Assembly: GCA_030533235.1 (NCBI GenBank)
Contig: JAUNJN010000023.1
Coordinates: forward strand, 1 to 37,796
Length of the DNA stretch: 37,796 nt
Direction of reading: 5' to 3'
Source: Eubacteriales bacterium
GTDB lineage: Bacteria > Bacillota > Clostridia > Lachnospirales > Lachnospiraceae
Part shown: positions 23,347 to 37,796 of the stretch, piece after piece
How positions within the stretch are numbered: position 1 is the stretch's first letter
Layout: each line of letters begins with the position of its first letter
Position numbers and translations under genes: made by a program
The notes under the pieces: generated by a model
Seen by the model: the letters and a program-made list of their open reading frames with translations, nothing else
Database searches by the model: none
Told to the model about the DNA's origin: nothing

Positions 23347-24729
23347 CTACTCTCCTTCTTCAATGTCGGCCAACGCCGCTTTTATCATAATTGCGCATTC
23401 TACACGTTTCTGCTGCAATTTGCATCCGATATCATAGGCATCATTAATCGTGCCATGGAACTGATAGGAATTTGCCGCACAACCGCCACTGCAATAAAAT
23501 CTTGCAAAGCAATCCTTGCATTTGTCCTTTGCATAAACGTTGCAAAGCTTAAATTCATCCACGATATCCGTACGCTTAATGCCGTTATATATATCTCCGA
23601 GCTTGAATTCCTCTGTACCGACAAACTGATGACACGGATACAACTCTCCTGTCGGCGTAACTGCCAGATACTCTGTGCCGGAGCCACATCCTGATAATCG
23701 TTTGTACACACACGGTCCGCCGTTTAAGTCTAACATATAGTGGAAAAATGTAACCGGTTTACCATGCTTATGACGCTCGATAATATCAAGTGCAAGCTTG
23801 TCATATTCTTCGCAGATACGATCAATGTCCTCCTCCCGTATCGCATAAGAATTACAGTCCGGAGTAACAACCGGCTCAATGGAAATCTCTTTAAATCCAA
23901 GATCCGCCATATGCTTGAAATCCTCTGTAAAGTCGAGGTTGTTGCGGGTAAAAGTACCTCTTACGTAATAGCTTTTGTCCCCACGCCTTGAAACAAACTC
24001 CTGAAACTTCGGGACAACCACATCATAGCTGCCCTTACCGTTTCGAGTCGGGCGCATCAAATCATGAATTTCCTTACGTCCATCCAAACTAAGCACAACA
24101 TTGGAAATCTCACGATTGCAAAACTCAATCACATCGTCATTTAACAACACCCCGTTTGTTGTCAACGTAAATCGGAAGTTTTTTCCGGCTTCCTTTTCGC
24201 GCATACGACCATATGCCACGATTTCCTTTACAACGTCGAAATTCATCAACGGCTCTCCGCCAAAGAAATCAACCTCGAGGTTTACACGATTACCGGAGTT
24301 CTCTATCAAAAAGTCAAGGGCGCGCTTACCAACCTCAAGGGTCATCAGCTCACGCTTTTGTCCATGATATTCACCCTCATCCGCAAAGCAGTACTGACAG
24401 GCAAGATTGCAATCATGTGCAATATGAAGACACAACGCCTTGACAACTGTTTTTCTTTTTTTGAAATCAATAATAATATCCTTGTAGACATCTTCCGTAA
24501 AAAGCTGACCACTCTCGGCAAGCTCCTTAATATCCGAATAAGCATCCTCGATGTCCGCATCCGAATACAAATCCTTGTACTTGCTTCTGATTGCTGCCGC
24601 AATCTCTGATTTGTCGTGCTCCTCATACATGGCGATCATGTCATAAACCAAATCGTCAACAACATGCACGGAACCACTGCATACATCAAGTACAATGTTA
24701 TATCCATTGTTTTTATACTGGTGTACCAC
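23347..24729 (-). CDS. scfB: SCIFF peptide radical SAM maturase
   Basis: A 460-aa radical SAM/SPASM enzyme that installs a thioether crosslink in the SCIFF peptide encoded just upstream. A RiPP-recognition-type region occupies about 1-85 (MVHQYKNNGYNIVLDV). The 4Fe-4S cluster ligands are Cys107, Cys111 and Cys114 in CNLACQYC. The C-terminal SPASM region shows CGSGTEYLAVTPTGELYPC and a cysteine-rich stretch ending DCFARFYCSGGC for two auxiliary clusters. The open frame runs 35 codons further upstream, but the GTG at 24729 has AAGGAG 10 nt before it and matches the family's N-terminus. The homologue from Clostridium thermocellum (CteB) forms a Cys-Thr thioether, so the same chemistry is expected. 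Confidence 0.95.
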   Translation of the reverse strand: MVHQYKNNGYNIVLDVCSGSVHVVDDLVYDMIAMYEEHDKSEIAAAIRSKYKDLYSDADIEDAYSDIKELAESGQLFTEDVYKDIIIDFKKRKTVVKALCLHIAHDCNLACQYCFADEGEYHGQKRELMTLEVGKRALDFLIENSGNRVNLEVDFFGGEPLMNFDVVKEIVAYGRMREKEAGKNFRFTLTTNGVLLNDDVIEFCNREISNVVLSLDGRKEIHDLMRPTRNGKGSYDVVVPKFQEFVSRRGDKSYYVRGTFTRNNLDFTEDFKHMADLGFKEISIEPVVTPDCNSYAIREEDIDRICEEYDKLALDIIERHKHGKPVTFFHYMLDLNGGPCVYKRLSGCGSGTEYLAVTPTGELYPCHQFVGTEEFKLGDIYNGIKRTDIVDEFKLCNVYAKDKCKDCFARFYCSGGCAANSYQFHGTINDAYDIGCKLQQKRVECAIMIKAALADIEEGE

Positions 24730-24758
24730 GATAAATATGCTCCTTTTAATAACGCAAC

Positions 24759-24792
24759 AAAAGAGGACTATCTGAGGATGGTCCCCTTTTTT
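24759..24792 (-). terminator. Hairpin between scfA and scfB (attenuator or mRNA-processing stem)
   Basis: On the minus strand AAAAGGGGAC (24790-24781) pairs with GTCCTCTTTT (24768-24759), a 10-bp stem with one G-U pair and a 12-nt loop. It lies between the short peptide gene and its maturase. Only four T end the stem on the minus strand, so partial read-through is likely. On the plus strand it is followed by six T. Confidence 0.55.
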
Positions 24793-24863
24793 CTTTGCAT
24801 TATGTATAAAATACGATACTGCACTGTGTAACACAGTTTACATAAAATGTAATTCAAATGAAA

Positions 24864-25004
24864 TTACTTCTGCTCGCAGCTCTGATTACCAACTGTACAA
24901 GAAGTCTTGCAAGCTGACTGACAAGAAGTCTGGCACTCGCCACATCCACCCTTAACTACTGTGTTCTTTAATGTCTTCTGTGTTAAAGTCTTAATTCTCT
25001 TCAT
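24864..25004 (-). CDS. scfA: SCIFF (six-cysteine) ranthipeptide precursor
   Basis: A 46-aa peptide with a basic leader, MKRIKTLTQKTLKNTVV, and a core with exactly six cysteines in the last 26 residues, including the highly conserved CQTSCQSACKTSCTVGNQSC. This is the near-universal clostridial SCIFF signature (SCIFF: six cysteines in forty-five residues). The ATG at 25004 gives the right leader and lies 9 nt behind GGAG. A second ATG two codons upstream is too close to that site. The radical SAM maturase follows about 135 nt downstream. The product is a ranthipeptide. A quorum-sensing-like signalling role has been reported in some clostridia, but none can be shown from this sequence. Confidence 0.95.
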   Translation of the reverse strand: MKRIKTLTQKTLKNTVVKGGCGECQTSCQSACKTSCTVGNQSCEQK

Positions 25005-25040
25005 CGTCATCTTCTCCGTTCTTAAAATTCTACTTATCGC

Positions 25041-25049
25041 ATTATAGCA
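25041..25049 (-). promoter_or_regulatory. Extended -10 promoter of scfA
   Basis: On the minus strand TGCTATAAT forms an extended -10 element about 37 nt before the scfA start codon. No convincing -35 box is seen at 17 nt, as is usual for extended -10 promoters. It separates scfA transcription from the upstream TIGR04086 gene. Confidence 0.5.
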
Positions 25050-25077
25050 TACTTCTTTAGGAAATAAAAGCATTTTT

Positions 25078-27683: not shown

Positions 27684-28412
27684 TTAAGATACCCTCACAC
27701 AAATCGCAGAATAGTTATCGGTTTTCGTCATATCCGCACGCGCAAGTACATATTGCTCCATGGCATCGGACCATTCCTGCGCCGTCTTTGTGTGCCGCAG
27801 CGTATCCATCATTTCCTGTTCGTAAACATACTCCCAAAAACCATCTGTCATAAGTGCAAAGGCTTGTTCTCCGGAACACTCCAGTACAGCACTTTTATCA
27901 TAAGATTTTCTGCCCCATTCGGCGCCCATGACACGCAGCACCTTGTTGCGTTCCTCATGCGTACGTATCGCAGCCTCGTCGATTTCCCCCATGTTAACCA
28001 GCATCTGAACAACACTGTGATCCTTTGTACGCTCATATTTTGTTCCATTATTATAAAAACGATACAGTCGGCTGTCTCCAATATGCGCCCAGCAAATATG
28101 CTCCTCCGTCACAACCAAAACAACCATCGTCGTCTTCATGGCATTTTTCATCCCACGCTCCTTCTGCAACGCAAGAAGCTTTTCCTGTGCAGAAGAAAAC
28201 GCACAGTCAAGAAAATCCGGCGTAGCACCTTGCCGCCGAAACAGCTCTGCTACATGCTCCGCCACACACGAGGATGCATCCTCCCCACAGTCATGTCCGC
28301 CCAATCCGTCACAAAGGACAAAACACATATCCTCCCCATGTGTTGCATATGCTACATAATCCTCATTATTTTCTCTGCCACCCGGCATTGTACGTAAAGA
28401 AAAATCGATCAT
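27684..28412 (-). CDS. PP2C-family Ser/Thr protein phosphatase
   Basis: A 242-aa metal-dependent phosphatase of the bacterial Stp type. Motifs in order: GGRENNEDYV near the N-terminus, the metal-binding CDGLGGHDCGE (34-44), HIGDSRLYRF, the TKDHSVVQMLVNMGEID segment, MTDGFWEYV, and the closing TKTDNYSAICVRV. All metal-coordinating aspartates appear present. These enzymes reverse Hanks-type kinase phosphorylation of threonine or serine. No kinase is in the window. The partner may be the usual stp-prkC pair elsewhere or a kinase in the surface/secretion locus extending to the right. AAGGAG lies 7 nt before the ATG. A strong terminator separates it from the upstream gene. Confidence 0.93.
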   Translation of the reverse strand: MIDFSLRTMPGGRENNEDYVAYATHGEDMCFVLCDGLGGHDCGEDASSCVAEHVAELFRRQGATPDFLDCAFSSAQEKLLALQKERGMKNAMKTTMVVLVVTEEHICWAHIGDSRLYRFYNNGTKYERTKDHSVVQMLVNMGEIDEAAIRTHEERNKVLRVMGAEWGRKSYDKSAVLECSGEQAFALMTDGFWEYVYEQEMMDTLRHTKTAQEWSDAMEQYVLARADMTKTDNYSAICVRVS

Positions 28413-28591: not shown

Positions 28592-29650
28592 TTATAATTC
28601 TACAATCTGAACAAGCTCATTATTATCTGTATAGACAAACAAAACATCCTTGCTCATTTCAAATATAAGTGACGTATATTTTTTCTCTAAGGTACATATA
28701 TTTGTCTGTTGGTTGGTATCAAGATTAAGCTCATTGATCTGATACTTGTCCACATCATATACGTACACAGCATTTTTTTCACTATCAAAGCCAACGATCC
28801 TTGTCCGGTTGTTTTCTGTTTTATAAACTTCACTTGCCTGATTTGCATCAAAATCCAATGAATATATCACATCACACACTATGCGATTTTGTTCCTCGCT
28901 GTATTTAATAGATGCACTATATTCTCTGCATAAAACATAGACCATACCATTTTTAACAGATAGGTTGTTGTTTGCAAAATGGTATGACTGCTTTATATCC
29001 ACCCATTTTGCATCCGCTTCCGGATTATCTACTGTCGTCGAAACAACATTGCTGCCAACATGCGAATCAAATCCGGCATAATAATATACTCCATGATCAC
29101 CATAGACATAGTGATCCATATTTTGTTTGCCTTCAAGCTTTTCCATAAGTTCAAAGTCAGTCACTTTATCATCTTTTATAATCGATGCTTCGTCAATACA
29201 TAATATACCAAATCCCTTATCGGTACTTAAATATATATTTTGGCCATCATACTCCACATCTGTGACATTCATTGCTTCATATGTATTCATTGTGTTCATA
29301 TCAACAATATAAAACACGCATTTCTCATCCAACACATACAGATACATATCTGAATAAATCATCTTTTTAATCTGCACATCATCTAAAATAATCTGACCGT
29401 CCGAGTATCGATAAAGCCTTGTACCGTCAACATATACAACATCTGTATCATTATGTGCAGTGTATTTGTAATCACTCTTGCAGTCTTCACTAAAGTGGTC
29501 GGTGATATATTCATCTTCAGACATATCTCGATCACGGTTTTCATCCTTATTTCTATTGAATTGCTTTAATACGATACCCATACATACGATTAATAGTATC
29601 AAGACTGATATAACAAAACTAAAAAACACTGTTTTTTTCTTTTTATTCAT
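28592..29650 (-). CDS. Membrane-anchored, propeller-like protein of unknown function
   Basis: A 352-aa protein with a short basic N-terminus, one membrane helix (about 8-28) and a large extracytoplasmic part. After a charged linker, the sequence shows about seven short beta-rich repeats of the form tyrosine-aspartate-x-hydrophobic strand (for example GTRLYRYSDG, MYLYVLDEK, NIYLSTDKGFGILCID, GVYYYAGFD, GMVYVLCRE, NAVYVYDVDK, DVLFVYTDN), which suggests a beta-propeller such as DUF5050. No catalytic motif is seen. Its ATG overlaps the end of the upstream gene by 8 nt and its AGGAG site lies within that gene, so the two are translationally coupled. It could be a receptor, a tether or an immunity partner of that protein. 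None of these can be proven here. Confidence 0.75.
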   Translation of the reverse strand: MNKKKKTVFFSFVISVLILLIVCMGIVLKQFNRNKDENRDRDMSEDEYITDHFSEDCKSDYKYTAHNDTDVVYVDGTRLYRYSDGQIILDDVQIKKMIYSDMYLYVLDEKCVFYIVDMNTMNTYEAMNVTDVEYDGQNIYLSTDKGFGILCIDEASIIKDDKVTDFELMEKLEGKQNMDHYVYGDHGVYYYAGFDSHVGSNVVSTTVDNPEADAKWVDIKQSYHFANNNLSVKNGMVYVLCREYSASIKYSEEQNRIVCDVIYSLDFDANQASEVYKTENNRTRIVGFDSEKNAVYVYDVDKYQINELNLDTNQQTNICTLEKKYTSLIFEMSKDVLFVYTDNNELVQIVEL

Positions 29651-31022
29651 TTGTACTTACTCCTAATATCTCCAAAACTCCTAAATCCGGTTTTCCCGGC
29701 CGGGCATCCATATCAATTAGAAAATCTCCCACGGAATCATAATATTTACCTTCCGACGCAACATAAGAATTATGCGCAACATAACACAAATCTCCGGTAA
29801 CCGGATTTATCTCTGCAGTCAAAGTATATGTATGTATCTGATCAAATACGTTATCTTGATTATTCATTGTGCTGATAATAACAACCGGTTCTGTGTCCGG
29901 TGTTACAATACCCGCAGCTGCAGTAGGATAATTTGTCGTCGAATAACCATAGTGCTCCATTGTACCAGGAATCGTATATGGATCTGTTCCAAGTGCACCA
30001 AATCCCATCAAATTACCGTTTTCCGTGTTATATTGTACAATTTCTGACAAAGTCACATTACTATCAGGATTCCAATATTCCATTGCATTATATATGGCAA
30101 TATTTTCGCAAAATGTTGCACCTGCGCTTGTTCCTTCAGGATTCATTCCATTGAAATACATTCCACTCAATGCTGTCCCTTCCTGGTCATTAATATATGT
30201 ATGAACACCATCTGTACAAATCAAACCATTCGAGCCGGATGTATCTACCAAATTACTCCAATTACTTTCAATAGCAGAGTTATGATTGTACACCGATGAA
30301 TCTGTTAATTCTCCGATAATTCCTCCAAGTCCTCCTGGTGTATCCTGATGTAAAAGAGAAAATATGAAATTCCACTTGTTATAGCTCTGATTTCCAAATG
30401 ACAGAAAATCTTCTAACCCAAAGGAACAATCATTAGTAGCAAAATCATCTGTATTCAATTCTAACATATTATATGTAAATTCATCCACAACTCCAGTTGG
30501 ATTTGCTCCTAATAGTAATTGAAGTAACTGTACCTTAGGATTCGGGTTATCCTCAGAAAATCCTTCTCTTAGTGCATCGATGTCAATTCGACCATTTAAC
30601 AATTCTTTATACAATTTCTTATACGCTTCAATCAATTTACTTTTATCTCTGTACCACCCTTCACAGAAGTATGTATCATCATTCCAAAAATCATCTATAC
30701 TCGGTTCTCCGGTATTACTTGACTTTGTTACATCTCCCGGGGTTGCACCCTTTGCATTTCCAACAATACTTTCTTCCGCCTGAATGTACCTTTTTACAAT
30801 TTGACCTAATGTCTCTGAAAAACACTGAATGTTTTTATTTTGCTTATTCAACTGCTCTCTAATTGTCTCAACAGTCGGGTCTAATTCCCCAAGTCCTATT
30901 CCACATAAATCCGAAGCAACGTTATCAACGATTGATGTCTGTTGCTGGATTAAATTGCAAATCACTGTAAATCGCTGTCCGCATTGCGCTATATTAGCGG
31001 TATTAATCATAAAATCACTCAT
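29643..31022 (-). CDS. Putative type VII-like substrate with ESX-like N-terminus and papain-like C-terminal domain
   Basis: A 459-aa protein with no signal peptide. Residues 1-88 form two amphipathic helices around a GIGLGELD turn and end in LGQIVKRYIQAEESI, the pattern of clostridial WXG100-like/ESX proteins (helical hairpin with a Y-x3-E type end). There is no classical WXG. Residues 110-190 look like a linker or peptidoglycan-binding-like segment (VQLLQLLLGANPTGVVDEFTYNML). The C-terminal part (about 295-440) resembles a papain/C39-like cysteine peptidase: Cys305 in GATFCENIAIYNAMEYW, GFGALGTDPYTIPGTMEHYG, His397 in DQIHTYTL, and Asn418 in VAHNSYV as a possible triad. It overlaps the membrane propeller gene by 8 nt. 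Function is inferred. Confidence 0.8.
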   Translation of the reverse strand: MSDFMINTANIAQCGQRFTVICNLIQQQTSIVDNVASDLCGIGLGELDPTVETIREQLNKQNKNIQCFSETLGQIVKRYIQAEESIVGNAKGATPGDVTKSSNTGEPSIDDFWNDDTYFCEGWYRDKSKLIEAYKKLYKELLNGRIDIDALREGFSEDNPNPKVQLLQLLLGANPTGVVDEFTYNMLELNTDDFATNDCSFGLEDFLSFGNQSYNKWNFIFSLLHQDTPGGLGGIIGELTDSSVYNHNSAIESNWSNLVDTSGSNGLICTDGVHTYINDQEGTALSGMYFNGMNPEGTSAGATFCENIAIYNAMEYWNPDSNVTLSEIVQYNTENGNLMGFGALGTDPYTIPGTMEHYGYSTTNYPTAAAGIVTPDTEPVVIISTMNNQDNVFDQIHTYTLTAEINPVTGDLCYVAHNSYVASEGKYYDSVGDFLIDMDARPGKPDLGVLEILGVSTNE

Positions 31023-32974: not shown

Positions 32975-35900
32975 TTATCTTGATTTTTTCTTTGCCACAA
33001 TCAGGAAGAATGCACCACCGCCGACCAAAACAACTGCGCCACCGGCAATCATGAAGTAAATCCATGTATTTGCTTTCTTTTTAACTCCGTATGTAAAGGA
33101 AATCGTCTGGCTCGCCTTGTTTCCTGCCTCATCCGTAGCAAACAATGTGAGTTCATAGTCACCCTGTGTTGTAACATCGATATGTGCCGTATTATTTTCG
33201 TTCACTGTAATCGGTGAACCGTTTAACTGAACCGACTGAAGCACATCCTCATCCAACTGAAGTGAAATATCAATCGAATAAGACTCATTCTTCACTTCTC
33301 CATCCTCAACACCGGTCACAATAAACACTGGTGCCTTTGTATCCAGTGAGAAGGTAACTGTTTTTTCTGATTTGTGCCCAAGCTCATCCACAGCCGTAAT
33401 GAGCAATGTATAGACGCCATCTTCAATCTCTGACACTCCGTCATATTCACTACCATTTAAATACATATGTACGTCACAGACTGTAAGGTCGGATACCAGT
33501 TCATCCAGGTCGATATCCCAATGGAACTCCGTAAAGATTTTACCATCATAATCATCAAGGCTGCCAATCACCGGTGCTTCCTTATCAATAATGAAATGTA
33601 CATTGTTGCTCTTTTCATTTCCGGCTGCATCTCGTACATACACGGTAATATCATAAATTCCGTCCTGATCAAACACATTCTCGAAAATTGTCGGATTTGC
33701 ATTCTGCTTGATGTTCGGGAACTGCAGTGTCTCAACCTTTCCGGTCTCATCAGTCTTGGTTCCGCTGATTGTAACCGTCTTGGTGCTAAAGAATTCCTCG
33801 TGAATCTCCACATAGAATTTCACGGACTCACTCGTCTTGTCATAGTTATTTACACCTGTCAGAGAAACGACCGGTACACTTTTATCCATCGTAAATGTCT
33901 GACTCAGGTTTGTCGTATGACCAATCTGATCTCTCGCACTAAACTCAATTCGGTAAGTACCTGTTTCCACGAGCGATTCCGTAATGCGAGTTTCCGCAGC
34001 ACTCGGTTTGATTGCGATTGTCTTGTAAACAAGCTCTTCCTGTCCATCTCCGGGACGTCGATAGATGGTTGCCTCTCCCGAAGCATCCTGCCACATCGTC
34101 TCATTCATCACGAGCGTAACCGTTGTATCGGTTGTCGTCATGGCGTTTGCACCTAAAATCTGAAGCTGTGGTGCGTTTTTATCAATTCGAAATTGTGCGG
34201 TTCTGACATCACTTGTATTGCCGGCTCTGTCAATCGCATAAAAGCTTACACTATAATCTCCATCCTCCGAAAATGCATATGACGACTTAGAGGTTGGCAT
34301 ATATGTCTGAACCGAATCAGACTGTCCCGGAACCTGATGTACAACTCTACAGTAATAATCATTATAGTCCGGATTGGCATCCGATACATCAAAGTTCACC
34401 GTAACGTCATTCATCTGGTTGATGCGACCTCTTGATTCACTATAATCCTGTCCATTCAGTCGGATCCCAACATCCGGCTTATCATTATCCATGATGAAAT
34501 ATAATGTTTGCTTATCGCCCGGATTGCCTGCCTGATCGCTTCCCTCAAAGGCAATCGTATGTCCGCCATCTCCCGAAACGGAAAGCACACCGATTTTACC
34601 ATACCAGGTCACAGACTGAACCTCATTGTTATCCGTAACCTTTAATTTACTCGTATCCACATTCTCATCATCAATTGTAAACTGAACTGTCACGTAATCA
34701 GACTTGTAGTACTGATCGGTTCCGTCACCGTTTGGTGCCTTACCACCTACAGTTCCCTCTGTAATCTTCGATGTAAGAATCGGCTTTGTGTTATCCAACT
34801 CAAAGCGGACAGTCCATTGTGCTGAAGGATTCTGCGCTTTATCAAACGCCTGTATCTTAACACTGTATGCTCCATCCGAAAGGCTTGACTTTCCATCTAA
34901 AACCGGAATATCCATAGAAACAGTCTGCGAAATATCCACTGCTTCTCCGGAAATATTCTTATGATAGGTCTTCGTTTCATTTCCATCCGGATACGCTACG
35001 GTATAAACCAAATTATCCAAGGTTAAGTTATCTTCTACCGCTGCACTTACACTCACGGTGTTACCATGAGCAATGTTGTTTCCACTGATGTAACCGGAAT
35101 CTTTATTGAACTGATAACTATCTTTGTCCGTATTAAGATATACCTTATCGGTATTAATCTGTGGTGCTGTTGCATCAACCTTGATATATTGCACGAGATT
35201 TGTACCGATAATCTCATTGCCGGATTTATCCTTGGCATAGAACTTTATCTTTGTACCAAAAGGAGTCTTCGATTCCGGAACATTGATATTTATATCGGCA
35301 CTCAATAAATTACTGCTAGCATTTGCAAGCGTATTTGTCGTTGTTCCCTCTCCCGTTTCATCCCCACTCGGAGCAATTGTATATTTTGCCTCCTCAAAGC
35401 ATGTTTCTTCGGTTTGAGCACCCGAATAGATGGTTCCCTTTAATTCATATGAATTATGCCACATCGTCGTATCGCCGGTATCAATTAGCTCAAGGTATGG
35501 TGGCGTCTTATCATAAATAATGCTGCCTACATTAACTTCGTTGTCCTGTGATGCTGTTTTTACAACGATTTTCAACTGCTCTAAACAAGCATTCACATCT
35601 TGGGATGGTGGAATTACAAAATCCCACTCCACCGAATAAGAAAACAAGTCATATGATTCACTAACCGGATCAACCTTGTTTGCAAAATGCGTCTCATCAA
35701 CAACATAGCTGAATGGATCCGGTATGGTTTCCCCTTTTTCAACAGTGCAGTATATATCTTCTGAACCATTCTTCATACGTTTCAAAGATATTTCCTCAAT
35801 TTCTTCTCCTGAACTCACAATTACATGAATCGTAACCGGGGTATCTTCATATCGGTATTCATTTTCGTCCATTTCCTGACCATTCAGGAAGCATTTCACA

Positions 35901-37570
35901 TCTAATATATTCGCAAACCTTTGAACCGTCGGAGCTATCACAATACCGCCTTCTGAATTACCTAATATATCCTTTACATCAATATTCATAGTTGTCGGAG
36001 GTGCAATATCAGACCAAAATGAAGCTTCGTTCAAATCATTATAATTTATTTCTGTATAATATAATGTACCTTCAATACTATCATACAGACCAAATCCAAA
36101 ATTAGCCTTCTCTGCATCTGAAATCTTTGTAAAATCGATATTTTCTTTTCTCGGAAATGATCCTTTAACCTTGTCTACCGCAGTCGCATCCGAAACAGCC
36201 AAAACATAACAATATGCTTTATTCTCATTAAGCATGTAGTTAGCTCCGGTTGTCAAATGCTCCCATGTCCCATCCGATTTTTTACGATACAATCCCTTGC
36301 ATGTTACTTTCGGCGCATCACCGTCAATTTCTACCGGAGCCGTTTTGTCAAGCAGAGAAATGAATGTACCATCACTTTTAAAATAACCGACACATCCATA
36401 ATTATGTCCTGACTTTTCCGTAGTCGGAGGATCTTGACTCCATACCTCATCTCCGTTGAGTGTCAAATCACCGGTTACAGCTTGATCCATTGTGACAATC
36501 GCATATTGTAGTTTTCCTACGTAGATATCATTGCCACTAATGTGAGTACCATCATATTTATTATCTGAAACAGCTTTCAAATTGGCTTTGTTGTATATTG
36601 TTTTTATTATGCTGTTATCGGCATTCTTAACATCAAAATGATTAGCTCCCGAGTAATCCCACGGATCGGTCCATGAAATCGGGTCCACGAAATATTTATA
36701 AAGATATTGCAAACTATACGCATACTCTACATCCATTATACTCAACTTAAATGCCATAAAGTCAAACCCTGCCGCAGCCTGCGTCTGGTAGTCCTCATAA
36801 TATCCTCGCAGCTCATTATATAAGGCTATTTCATTTGAATACCAATCTGGATGAACATCCCAATCTGGGTTGTAATATGGCTCTGTTGTCTGTGCAATAT
36901 ATTGAGTTATATCATATTCAAAATCATATCGGACAAGTTCAACGTCCGTAACCACAGGTTTTACATATACACCTATAGGATAATCCGTAGCTGGGTCAGA
37001 CGCCATTTTTAACAAGTAATTATTTGTATATGTAGCATCGATATCCGTCATAAATAATTTGCTATCGGCTGCAAATGGCATACATTTAACATCAATTTCA
37101 TATGTTATCTTATACACTGGCGTTACGTTTGCCTCAAAAGAAATCGATTCTGTTGGATTTGATTTCTTTACACCACTTATCTGCATAGGAAAACTGCTAG
37201 CATTCTTTTCCCCATCTAACGAGCTACACTCTACCGAATAGTTTGTCTCCAACTGTATCTGTAGCTTTCCATCAGCCACATGCAGATTTCTTACAAGAAC
37301 CTCCGCTTTTGCATCATACCCCTGAACAACTTTATATATATTGGGAGTCTCTGCTGTACCAAAATTATAATCCTTTAACGCTCTATTCAGTGTCTCGGTC
37401 GCTTGATACGTCTCCACGATTGGATCCGGAGTTCCTCCGCCTCCGCCTTCTCCTTCTGCCTTTGCGCCATATTCAGCCCCCATGCCTGTGTGAAGAGGAA
37501 CAAAGAGCATAAGTGCACTAAGGCCAACGGCGATTGTTCTTTTTACTACGCTTGTATGTTGTTTTTTCAC
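32975..37570 (-). CDS. Large surface protein with tandem Ig-like domains and C-terminal membrane anchor
   Basis: A 1531-aa exported protein. The signal peptide begins VKKQHTSVVKRTIAVGLSAL and ends near AEYGAKAEG, with a glycine-rich hinge after it. The first 680 residues are a unique region. From about 690 on, eight Ig-like/fibronectin-like modules follow, each with a boundary of the form D-(K/N/T)-x-(A/V/K)-P (DKTPP, DATAPQ, DNTKPI, DNDKPDV, DKNAPQ, DKSVPVV, DKEAPV, DTKAPVF), at residues of about 687, 800, 927, 1029, 1131, 1230, 1329 and 1409. A membrane helix (about 1505-1525, WIYFMIAGGAVVLVGGGAFF) and KKKSR form the end; no LPXTG sortase motif. The GTG at 37570 has AAGGAGG 8 nt upstream, which favours it over an ATG 16 codons earlier. 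It follows the upstream gene by 13 nt. Likely a cell-surface scaffold or adhesin. Confidence 0.88.
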   Translation of the reverse strand: MKKQHTSVVKRTIAVGLSALMLFVPLHTGMGAEYGAKAEGEGGGGGTPDPIVETYQATETLNRALKDYNFGTAETPNIYKVVQGYDAKAEVLVRNLHVADGKLQIQLETNYSVECSSLDGEKNASSFPMQISGVKKSNPTESISFEANVTPVYKITYEIDVKCMPFAADSKLFMTDIDATYTNNYLLKMASDPATDYPIGVYVKPVVTDVELVRYDFEYDITQYIAQTTEPYYNPDWDVHPDWYSNEIALYNELRGYYEDYQTQAAAGFDFMAFKLSIMDVEYAYSLQYLYKYFVDPISWTDPWDYSGANHFDVKNADNSIIKTIYNKANLKAVSDNKYDGTHISGNDIYVGKLQYAIVTMDQAVTGDLTLNGDEVWSQDPPTTEKSGHNYGCVGYFKSDGTFISLLDKTAPVEIDGDAPKVTCKGLYRKKSDGTWEHLTTGANYMLNENKAYCYVLAVSDATAVDKVKGSFPRKENIDFTKISDAEKANFGFGLYDSIEGTLYYTEINYNDLNEASFWSDIAPPTTMNIDVKDILGNSEGGIVIAPTVQRFANILDVKCFLNGQEMDENEYRYEDTPVTIHVIVSSGEEIEEISLKRMKNGSEDIYCTVEKGETIPDPFSYVVDETHFANKVDPVSESYDLFSYSVEWDFVIPPSQDVNACLEQLKIVVKTASQDNEVNVGSIIYDKTPPYLELIDTGDTTMWHNSYELKGTIYSGAQTEETCFEEAKYTIAPSGDETGEGTTTNTLANASSNLLSADININVPESKTPFGTKIKFYAKDKSGNEIIGTNLVQYIKVDATAPQINTDKVYLNTDKDSYQFNKDSGYISGNNIAHGNTVSVSAAVEDNLTLDNLVYTVAYPDGNETKTYHKNISGEAVDISQTVSMDIPVLDGKSSLSDGAYSVKIQAFDKAQNPSAQWTVRFELDNTKPILTSKITEGTVGGKAPNGDGTDQYYKSDYVTVQFTIDDENVDTSKLKVTDNNEVQSVTWYGKIGVLSVSGDGGHTIAFEGSDQAGNPGDKQTLYFIMDNDKPDVGIRLNGQDYSESRGRINQMNDVTVNFDVSDANPDYNDYYCRVVHQVPGQSDSVQTYMPTSKSSYAFSEDGDYSVSFYAIDRAGNTSDVRTAQFRIDKNAPQLQILGANAMTTTDTTVTLVMNETMWQDASGEATIYRRPGDGQEELVYKTIAIKPSAAETRITESLVETGTYRIEFSARDQIGHTTNLSQTFTMDKSVPVVSLTGVNNYDKTSESVKFYVEIHEEFFSTKTVTISGTKTDETGKVETLQFPNIKQNANPTIFENVFDQDGIYDITVYVRDAAGNEKSNNVHFIIDKEAPVIGSLDDYDGKIFTEFHWDIDLDELVSDLTVCDVHMYLNGSEYDGVSEIEDGVYTLLITAVDELGHKSEKTVTFSLDTKAPVFIVTGVEDGEVKNESYSIDISLQLDEDVLQSVQLNGSPITVNENNTAHIDVTTQGDYELTLFATDEAGNKASQTISFTYGVKKKANTWIYFMIAGGAVVLVGGGAFFLIVAKKKSR

Positions 37571-37583
37571 TTGCTTATCCTCC

Positions 37584-37796
37584 TTATAAACTCTCTGATG
37601 AATGTACTTCCAATACATTATATAGTACCGTATATCCCTTATTTATATTTTGTACCGTTTGATTAGTAAGTACGCTTGTCTCTCCGAAATCCCCATTTCC
37701 GACTAACACATCCGTTGCTTCTTCATCCCAATCAGCGCCGAGTACTTCGGTCGGTGCTTCATCCGGATCACTTCCAAGCACCTCGGTCGGTGCATA
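37584..37796 (-). CDS. C-terminal end of acidic protein with 12-residue TxVL repeats, cut by window edge
   Basis: Only the last 70 codons are in the window and the frame is open to the right edge, so the start is unknown. The visible end is acidic. It carries four threonines spaced exactly 12 residues apart, each followed by x-Val-Leu: PTEVLG, PTEVLG, ATDVL and ETSVL. The rest (TNQTVQNINKGYTVLYNVLE) is uncharged-to-basic. Thr with Leu at +3 is a classical recognition pattern for FHA domains once the Thr is phosphorylated, and similar repeated sites occur in secretion-linked phosphoproteins of clostridia (recalled, not searched). It is 13 nt before the Ig-repeat gene and in the same operon. 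No more can be said about the protein without the sequence to the right. Confidence 0.75.
   Translation of the reverse strand, partial: YAPTEVLGSDPDEAPTEVLGADWDEEATDVLVGNGDFGETSVLTNQTVQNINKGYTVLYNVLEVHSSESL

What the first reader, a model, noticed from the sequence alone, without database searches (positions are those of the whole stretch)
29643..31022. Candidate type VII-like secreted cysteine peptidase with ESX-like N-terminus
The protein has no signal peptide. Its N-terminal 88 residues read as a two-helix hairpin ending in a Y-x3-E pattern typical of clostridial WXG100-like proteins. The last 160 residues look like a papain/C39-type domain with Cys305, His397 and Asn418 in the expected order. 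Such a combination would be a polymorphic toxin or wall-modifying effector. The middle region (about 160-190) also has a weak peptidoglycan-binding-like helix. I do not recognise it as a described family.
Basis: partly seen in the sequence, partly recalled or inferred. Interest (0 to 1): 0.7.

Follow-up and report, generated by a model that had tools for sequence, protein, structure and literature searches.

The report
Type VII secreted cysteine-peptidase-like toxin candidate
A gut-type bacterium encodes a protein with an export hairpin for the type VII secretion machine joined to a papain-like enzyme domain of an unnamed family, followed at once by a membrane-anchored partner that probably protects the producer, so the pair looks like an undescribed bacterial weapon and its antidote.

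Summary
The 459-aa ORF (29643-31022, minus) has three parts. (1) Residues 1-98: an ESX-like helical hairpin. It heads 11 proteins in this genome, with 8 C-terminal types by blastp, one an RHS protein. It aligns end to end with the genome's own WXG100-type proteins (hhalign E 1.1e-5) and co-occurs with EssC in 15 of 16 kept genomes. (2) Residues 111-187 resemble sequence after the LXG domain of two LXG proteins; no peptidoglycan-binding match. (3) Residues ~268-459 model as a papain-like fold (Foldseek: staphopains, Josephin; best E 2.9e-3). C305, H397, N418: 53, 52, 53 of 53. Pfam and NCBIfam name neither (1) nor (3). The next gene (28592-29650, 8-nt overlap) encodes a membrane-anchored protein. 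Homologues follow this C-domain in 6 of 6 fusions with other N-termini and in 0 of 57 stand-alone loci. Best reading: T7SSb effector plus extracytoplasmic immunity protein. Conservation, predicted fold and gene pairing are shown; export, catalysis, toxicity and immunity are inferred. A new variant of a known kind.

The parts
29643..31022 (-). P0001, 459-aa candidate T7SSb effector
   Evidence: two paralogues on contig C46 of the same genome, 50-51% identical over the matched parts
30729..31022 (-). residues 1-98: ESX/WXG100-like helical hairpin with IGLGE in place of WXG in the turn and Y79-x3-E83
30453..30704 (-). residues 107-190: linker; 111-187 resembles sequence after the LXG domain of two LXG proteins
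   Evidence: LXG by Pfam
29646..30221 (-). residues 268-459: papain-like C-terminal domain of an unnamed family
   Evidence: no Pfam/NCBIfam model
30183..30185 (-). Q280 codon, possible oxyanion-hole Gln (inference)
   Evidence: 53 of 53
30108..30110 (-). C305 codon, predicted nucleophile
   Evidence: 53 of 53, biased by the scan pattern; start of helix 301-317
29832..29834 (-). H397 codon, predicted catalytic His
   Evidence: 52 of 53
29769..29771 (-). N418 codon, predicted third residue
   Evidence: 53 of 53
28592..29650 (-). P0002, 352-aa membrane-anchored partner and candidate immunity protein; ORF overlaps P0001 by 8 nt (29643-29650)
   Evidence: low-confidence model with helix 3-35 then beta strands
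27684..28412 (-). P0003, PP2C phosphatase, 43% identical to one in the C46 T7SSb locus; association with the effector inferred from this resemblance

Best explanation
P0001 is a substrate of a type VIIb secretion system: its hairpin (1-98) docks on the EssC-centred machine, probably with small WXG100-like helper proteins, and the C-terminal papain-like domain (about 268-459) is the toxin. It acts outside the cytoplasm of a neighbouring cell, where C305/H397/N418 most likely cut a peptide or amide bond in an exposed membrane or wall component. P0002, made from the overlapping next gene and held on the outer face of the membrane, binds the domain and protects the producer and its kin. Shown here: domain layout, conservation, predicted fold, modularity, co-occurrence with EssC, gene pairing. 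Inferred: export, catalysis, target compartment, toxicity, immunity.
For: Hairpin: a profile of 9 own-genome copies finds those 9, two further strong copies, and a true WXG100 protein at E 1.5e-4; hhalign to 7 own WXG100-type proteins E 1.1e-5, 82%, 86 collinear columns; Foldseek CFP10-ESAT6 TMt 0.70, though E 1.7. The genome has two T7SSb loci with EssC over cut-off, YukD-like and WXG100 proteins; two P0001 paralogues lie on the same contig and strand, about 12 kb downstream of EssC in one of them. In G143 hairpin proteins sit among YukD, WXG100, DUF4176 and PP2C genes (L151; the EssC of that genome is on another contig). Co-occurrence: 15 of 16 kept hairpin-fusion genomes have EssC over cut-off against 50 of 283 others; without the own genome 14 of 15. 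Enzyme. The same C-domain sits on three other long N-termini, L037, L102 and L104, not detectably similar to each other or to P0001 by blastp (best E 0.02); G099, source of L037, has EssC over cut-off, and a neighbour in L102 is YwqH-like, just below cut-off. Partner: homologous anchored proteins follow the C-domain in 6 of 6 fusions (4 with a lipobox, 2 with a TM anchor) and in 0 of 57 stand-alone loci, 52 of which have at least 1 kb downstream. Precedent: TslA with immunity lipoprotein TilA (PMC10730906, passages).
Against: No hairpin member reaches a Pfam or NCBIfam cut-off (best ESAT-6-type hit NF035934 at 0.0026, in 4 of 9 members). Designed coiled coils outscore EsxB in the PDB profile search, so coiled-coil composition contributes. 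No Foldseek match reaches E 0.001. Catalytic distances not measured. The N-termini of L037, L102 and L104 have no Pfam match and score weakly with the hairpin profile (E 0.0038-0.14 in a search of four sequences); calling them T7-type rests on context and on reading by eye, and for L104 on reading alone. The window contig carries no T7SS machinery gene that I recognised. P0002's fold is uncertain (pLDDT 47). The same-genus genome G180 lacks both the hairpin and EssC over cut-off, so the trait is accessory.
Confidence: 0.64

Rival explanations
1. A self-directed, T7SS-exported envelope enzyme (wall remodelling or processing of surface proteins, as EssH serves S. aureus T7SSb); P0002 is its surface receptor or regulator, not an antidote.
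For: Surface proteins lie next door (P0004 choline-binding repeats, P0005 Ig-like); EssH shows that a T7SSb locus uses a CHAP-type cysteine amidase/peptidase (PMC13059805, passages).
Against: Three diverging copies in one genome, one of them displaced, and a hairpin shared with RHS and lipase-like proteins look like polymorphic toxins; EssH has a Sec signal peptide.
Confidence: 0.15
2. A T7SS-exported cysteine enzyme that is not a peptidase: transferase, deamidase or glycan/lipid amidase on the same fold; delivery and immunity as in the best explanation (this rival overlaps it).
For: Papain-like folds serve many reactions (recalled); Foldseek also lists the Tae1/Tse1 amidase, weakly (E 0.14, probability 0.23).
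Against: The top seven Foldseek matches are staphopains and Josephin peptidases, but at weak E-values (2.9e-3 to 7.9e-3).
Confidence: 0.25
3. A host-directed (animal gut) protease effector, with P0002 preventing damage to the producer's own surface.
For: The window's genome belongs to a family whose named records include rumen and gut isolates (titles); exported proteases can act on host proteins (general knowledge).
Against: Pairing with a partner in 6 of 6 fusions and cassette-like recombination are typical of interbacterial toxins; nothing found points to host targeting.
Confidence: 0.06
4. The hairpin is a generic coiled coil and P0001 is not a T7SS substrate.
For: Designed coiled coils outscore EsxB; some profile hits are spurious (G022 coiled coil, G249 flagellin).
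Against: Conserved Y-x3-E, collinear WXG100 alignment, placement among T7SSb genes, EssC co-occurrence.
Confidence: 0.08

Closest known systems
TslA-TilA (S. aureus T7SSb lipase toxin and immunity lipoprotein; PMC10730906, passages)
   Same: T7SSb helical export domain on an enzyme that acts outside the cytoplasm, with a lipoprotein immunity gene beside it
   Different: TslA is a phospholipase with the domains in reverse order; the sequences were not compared directly here, but P0001 and P0002 show no lipase or DUF576 match in Pfam
Tox-PL1 and other papain-like toxin domains of polymorphic toxins (Zhang et al. 2012, PMC3482391, passages and section 12)
   Same: papain-like C-terminal domain behind a T7SS N-terminal domain
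   Different: signature NC-H-DxQ for Tox-PL1 against C-HT-HN here; no papain-like toxin model of Pfam matched P0001 at E up to 5 (that Pfam holds such models is recalled)
LXG polymorphic toxins (PF04740)
   Same: N-terminal helical T7SSb domain plus variable toxin tip; a post-LXG stretch resembles P0001 residues 111-187
   Different: the LXG model is 202 positions long; P0001 has a 98-aa hairpin and no LXG match
WXG100/ESAT-6 proteins (PF06013)
   Same: hairpin, length, Y-x3-E, alignment to own WXG100-type proteins
   Different: no WXG in the turn, no Pfam match, fused to a long C-terminus
Staphopains (C47) and C39 peptidases
   Same: predicted fold and Cys-His-Asn/Asp order (residue order of the known families recalled)
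   Different: no signal peptide; 8-14% identity in the Foldseek alignments; Peptidase_C39_2 only at 0.077 in 1 of 11 members

Membership tests
WXG100 (PF06013) | helix-turn-helix hairpin of about 100 aa | tested here: met
   helices 2-41 and 49-92 at modest confidence; CFP10-ESAT6 match TMt 0.70, E 1.7
WXG100 (PF06013) | WxG motif in the turn | tested here: not met
   IGLGE in the turn
WXG100 (PF06013) | score over the Pfam/NCBIfam cut-off | tested here: not met
   no PF06013 hit for P0001 or 9 members; TIGR03930 at 0.08 in 1 of 9 members
T7SSb substrate | Y-x3-[DE] after the hairpin | tested here: met
   Y79/E83 in P0001; 2 of 9 own paralogues have F at 79
T7SSb substrate | T7SSb machinery in the genome | tested here: met
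   EssC over cut-off on C46 and C15
T7SSb substrate | EssC-dependent export | not testable with these tools
   needs an experiment
LXG toxin (PF04740) | LXG domain | tested here: not met
   no match at E up to 5
Papain-like (clan CA) cysteine peptidase | Cys, His, Asn in order, conserved | tested here: met
   53, 52, 53 of 53
Papain-like (clan CA) cysteine peptidase | papain-like fold | tested here: met
   predicted model only; top seven Foldseek hits are staphopains and Josephins, probability 0.92-1.00, E 2.9e-3 to 7.9e-3, none at 0.001 or better
Papain-like (clan CA) cysteine peptidase | catalytic residues in contact | not testable with these tools
   no coordinates returned
Papain-like (clan CA) cysteine peptidase | peptide-bond cleavage | not testable with these tools
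   needs an assay
Peptidase C39 (PF13529) | Pfam score over cut-off | tested here: not met
   0.077 in 1 of 11 members
Tox-PL1 and kin | Pfam model match / NC-H-DxQ signature | tested here: not met
   no match; signature read
Polymorphic toxin system | one N-terminal domain on many unrelated C-termini | tested here: met
   11 proteins, 8 C-terminal types by blastp at 1e-3 in this genome
Polymorphic toxin system | adjacent cognate immunity gene | tested here: inconclusive
   genetic pairing 6 of 6; neutralisation not testable

The most novel reading that the evidence does not exclude
Lachnospiraceae carry an undescribed class of T7SSb polymorphic toxins headed by a single 98-aa WXG-less ESX hairpin and matched to a subtype of EssC. 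One of its warheads is a new papain-like enzyme family acting outside the cytoplasm with its own membrane-anchored immunity family. The warhead was recruited from a stand-alone, mostly signal-less protein that recurs across Lachnospiraceae and was moved onto at least four different secretion N-termini.
Probability: 0.52. Interest if true: 0.68.

Novelty: new variant of a known kind. Interest (0 to 1): 0.56.

Why it matters
Lachnospiraceae are abundant gut and rumen bacteria (general knowledge), and library searches combining that name with type VII secretion terms showed no paper whose title concerns their T7SS effectors (0 papers; 3 listed; the library lacks most subscription papers and all preprints). 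This pair gives a concrete, testable toxin-immunity couple; a profile that finds further effectors (hits in 23 of 299 genomes of the family, 16 kept as fusions); a candidate link between a hairpin class and an EssC subtype; and a case where a stand-alone enzyme family seems to be the source or relative of a toxin.

Tried and rejected
Peptidoglycan-binding domain at 160-190: no Pfam or NCBIfam support. LXG membership: no match. Phage origin: in viral contigs 3 stretches matched a pattern and none was confirmed (reaches close relatives only); no PHROG match for P0001. PDB sequence search with P0001: no hit. PDB search with a C-domain profile: 5 hits, best 0.022, ferritins and designed proteins, taken as chance. 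Relation of the C-domain to the 419-aa cargo in the C46 T7SSb locus, which looked C39-like by eye: hhalign E 0.13, probability 0.4%, not supported, and no Pfam match for it. Association of P0001-like sequence with EssC: none (3 of 12 genomes, p 0.50), because most matches are stand-alone C-domain proteins.

The first N-domain count (20 of 23 genomes with EssC) was tightened. I dropped G022 (coiled coil), G126 (no clear ORF) and G249 (flagellin) as spurious, and G058, G076, G137 and G142 as plain WXG100 or stop-interrupted hits, leaving 16. Most of the 16 were read; G166 and G202 were kept on open-frame length alone. The 17 genomes with the two-piece EssC match were picked by eye from the list. 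Fisher values ignore phylogeny. From the 60 loci I left 8 out of the conservation count: six that looked like near-duplicates (L056, L058, L065, L073, L088, L089), the fusion L112 and the truncated L113.

P0002: Pfam gave only a sub-threshold YxzE hit (0.005) over its N-terminal anchor region and two weaker ones. Its fold search gave beta-propellers at weak E-values from a poor model; a hint only.

After the request to recheck I ran and mended: the N-termini of L037, L102 and L104 are now called T7-type only with caveats; the Y79 counts include the two Phe; eight, not seven, loci were left out; confidence of the best explanation was lowered from 0.66 to 0.64, the novel case from 0.55 to 0.52, and the coiled-coil rival raised from 0.07 to 0.08 for the weaker N-terminus evidence.

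Full report
WHAT IS THERE. The ORF at 29643-31022 (-) encodes 459 aa. The window is a whole 37.8-kb contig (C27) of a 2.28-Mb, 67-contig draft genome, 87% complete. Contigs of same-family genomes reappear, with the same lengths, as named Lachnospiraceae records (G041:C33, 215,772 bases = L054; G049:C16, 69,775 bases = L099), so the family is Lachnospiraceae.

NO KNOWN FAMILY. Pfam and NCBIfam gave no hit near a cut-off for P0001, for 9 hairpin members (the best relevant hit is the ESAT-6-type NF035934, 0.0026, matched by 4 of 9) or for 11 C-domain members. PDB by sequence: none.

HAIRPIN. Searching the own genome with P0001 gave two near paralogues on contig C46 and several proteins that share only the N-terminal part. 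A profile of nine such N-termini finds those nine, two further strong copies and, more weakly, a true WXG100 protein (E 1.5e-4). The 11 proteins fall into 8 C-terminal types by blastp at 1e-3, including an RHS protein with DUF6531. In other genomes the hairpin heads proteins of 240-590 aa and in one case lies at the C-terminus of a lipase-like protein, the order reported for TslA. hhalign against seven own WXG100-type proteins (4 of 7 over the Pfam cut-off, 2 below it, 1 without a hit): E 1.1e-5, 81.7%, 86 collinear columns. Residues 79 and 83 are Y/F and E/D (7 Y and 2 F, 8 E and 1 D of 9); the WXG turn reads IGLGE here. The model shows helices 2-41 and 49-92, and Foldseek lists CFP10-ESAT6 (TMt 0.70, probability 0.87, E 1.7). 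Against this: designed coiled coils outscore EsxB in the PDB profile search.

MACHINERY. The genome has two T7SSb loci, on C46 and C15, with EssC over the TIGR03928 cut-off, YukD-like proteins (one just over and one just under the Pfam cut-off) and WXG100 proteins. Two P0001 paralogues with their partners lie on the same strand, about 12 kb downstream of EssC on C46. In G143 hairpin proteins sit among YukD, WXG100, DUF4176 and PP2C genes; EssC of that genome is on another contig. P0003 of the window is 43% identical to a PP2C of the C46 locus. Of 299 family genomes, own included, 23 have a hairpin hit; after dropping 7 spurious or plain-WXG100 genomes, 15 of 16 have EssC over cut-off against 50 of 283 others, and 11 of 16 have the EssC type that matches the profile in two pieces, against 6 of 283 (14 of 15 and 10 of 15 without the own genome). 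In the class sample, 2 of 390 other genomes had hairpin hits at 1e-5, in two other families.

MIDDLE. Residues 111-170 and 111-187 match, at 39% and 37% identity, the region after the LXG domain of two LXG proteins, one of which ends in a ribonuclease domain.

C-DOMAIN. A scan of genome contigs with four stand-alone relatives gave 60 loci. P0001 aligned with 52 of them shows C305 53/53, H397 52/53, N418 53/53, Q280 53/53. The Cys was part of the scan pattern; H397 and N418 were not. The model is confident over most of 301-459 and Foldseek's first seven matches are staphopains and Josephin domains, E 2.9e-3 to 7.9e-3; the C39-bearing transporter PCAT1 follows at 0.17. Fifty-seven of the 60 loci carry a stand-alone ORF (203-327 aa, median 231) with no partner gene found; 4 of 57 have a strongly hydrophobic N-terminal stretch. 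L102 and L104 are fusions to long N-termini, L112 a fusion to an acyltransferase-like protein (name by eye). A further fusion, L037, came from G099. These N-termini have no Pfam match and are not detectably similar to P0001's or to each other.

PARTNER. P0002 starts inside the end of P0001 (8-nt overlap). blastp and an HMM over 1535 ORFs of the loci fetched by then show homologues only beside fused C-domains: window, C46a, C46b, L037 (two full copies and two partial ORFs), L102, L104. That is 6 of 6 fusions (L112 not counted; it has none) and 0 of 57 stand-alone loci, 52 of them with at least 1 kb downstream. The HMM was built from the partners first seen beside fusions, so the negative side is the informative one. 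Four have a lipobox; P0002 and the C46a partner have an uncleaved-looking anchor. P0002 modelled poorly (pLDDT 47) as a TM helix plus beta strands with weak beta-propeller matches.

CASSETTE BEHAVIOUR. On C46 the two effector copies share a 548-bp block at 98.9% identity, and the two partner genes a 441-bp block at 84%; the only other block listed is 80 bp at 81%. The downstream copy matches P0001 only from residue 18, as a displaced cassette would. The upstream copy has a frame change before its tail and was left as pieces.

MECHANISM. An effector delivered by T7SSb whose enzyme domain acts on the outside of a neighbour, with an outward-facing antidote, fits all of this. Precedent: TslA/TilA (PMC10730906, passages). 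Zhang et al. 2012 (PMC3482391, passages and section 12) describe papain-like domains behind T7SS N-termini, and the review PMC10765036 (passages) describes WXG100-like proteins without the motif, so the kind is known while the hairpin and C-domain families are not named in the libraries searched. The target, and whether the reaction is proteolysis, are open.

Noticed in passing
L025:8655-13505 (own genome C47): A 1616-aa RHS protein with DUF6531 headed by the same hairpin, a probable T7SS RHS toxin; compare LrhA of Listeria (PMC10327511, passages).
   Followed up: partly
L136; L149:7920-9536 (G147): Lipase-like protein (Mbeg1-like, GHSKGG) with the hairpin at its C-terminus, reverse order as in TslA.
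   Followed up: partly
L021:1370-5954 (own genome C46): Two P0001-like copies with a 548-bp near-identical block; one lacks the start of the hairpin, the other has a frame change; an IstB-like ORF (name by eye) lies between.
   Followed up: partly
57 of the 60 loci L054-L113: A recurrent stand-alone C-domain protein of Lachnospiraceae and a few Clostridiales-labelled records, ORFs of 203-327 aa, function unknown.
   Followed up: partly
L112:8771-10402: C-domain fused to an acyltransferase-3-like membrane protein (name recalled from sequence).
   Followed up: no
G003, G013, G029, G076, G088, G111, G134, G137, G142, G143, G147, G166, G188, G200, G239, G253, own C15: An EssC type that matches TIGR03928 in two pieces, enriched in hairpin genomes.
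   Followed up: partly
window 37584-37796: Tail of an ORF with TEVL/TDVL/TSVL repeats at the contig end, possibly FHA-binding phosphothreonine motifs (recalled).
   Followed up: no
window 32975-37618: 1547-aa Ig-like surface protein with a C-terminal TM-like stretch; a similar one lies beside hairpin proteins in L149:572-6199.
   Followed up: partly
window 23347-25073: Probable SCIFF-like cysteine-rich peptide (24864-25073) with a radical-SAM-type maturase (23347-24834); names recalled, not tested.
   Followed up: no
L026:3745-4050; L151:3019-3330: DUF4176 genes next to hairpin effectors; similar short ORFs follow several hairpin proteins with a recurrent glycine/alanine-rich C-terminus (by eye).
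   Followed up: no
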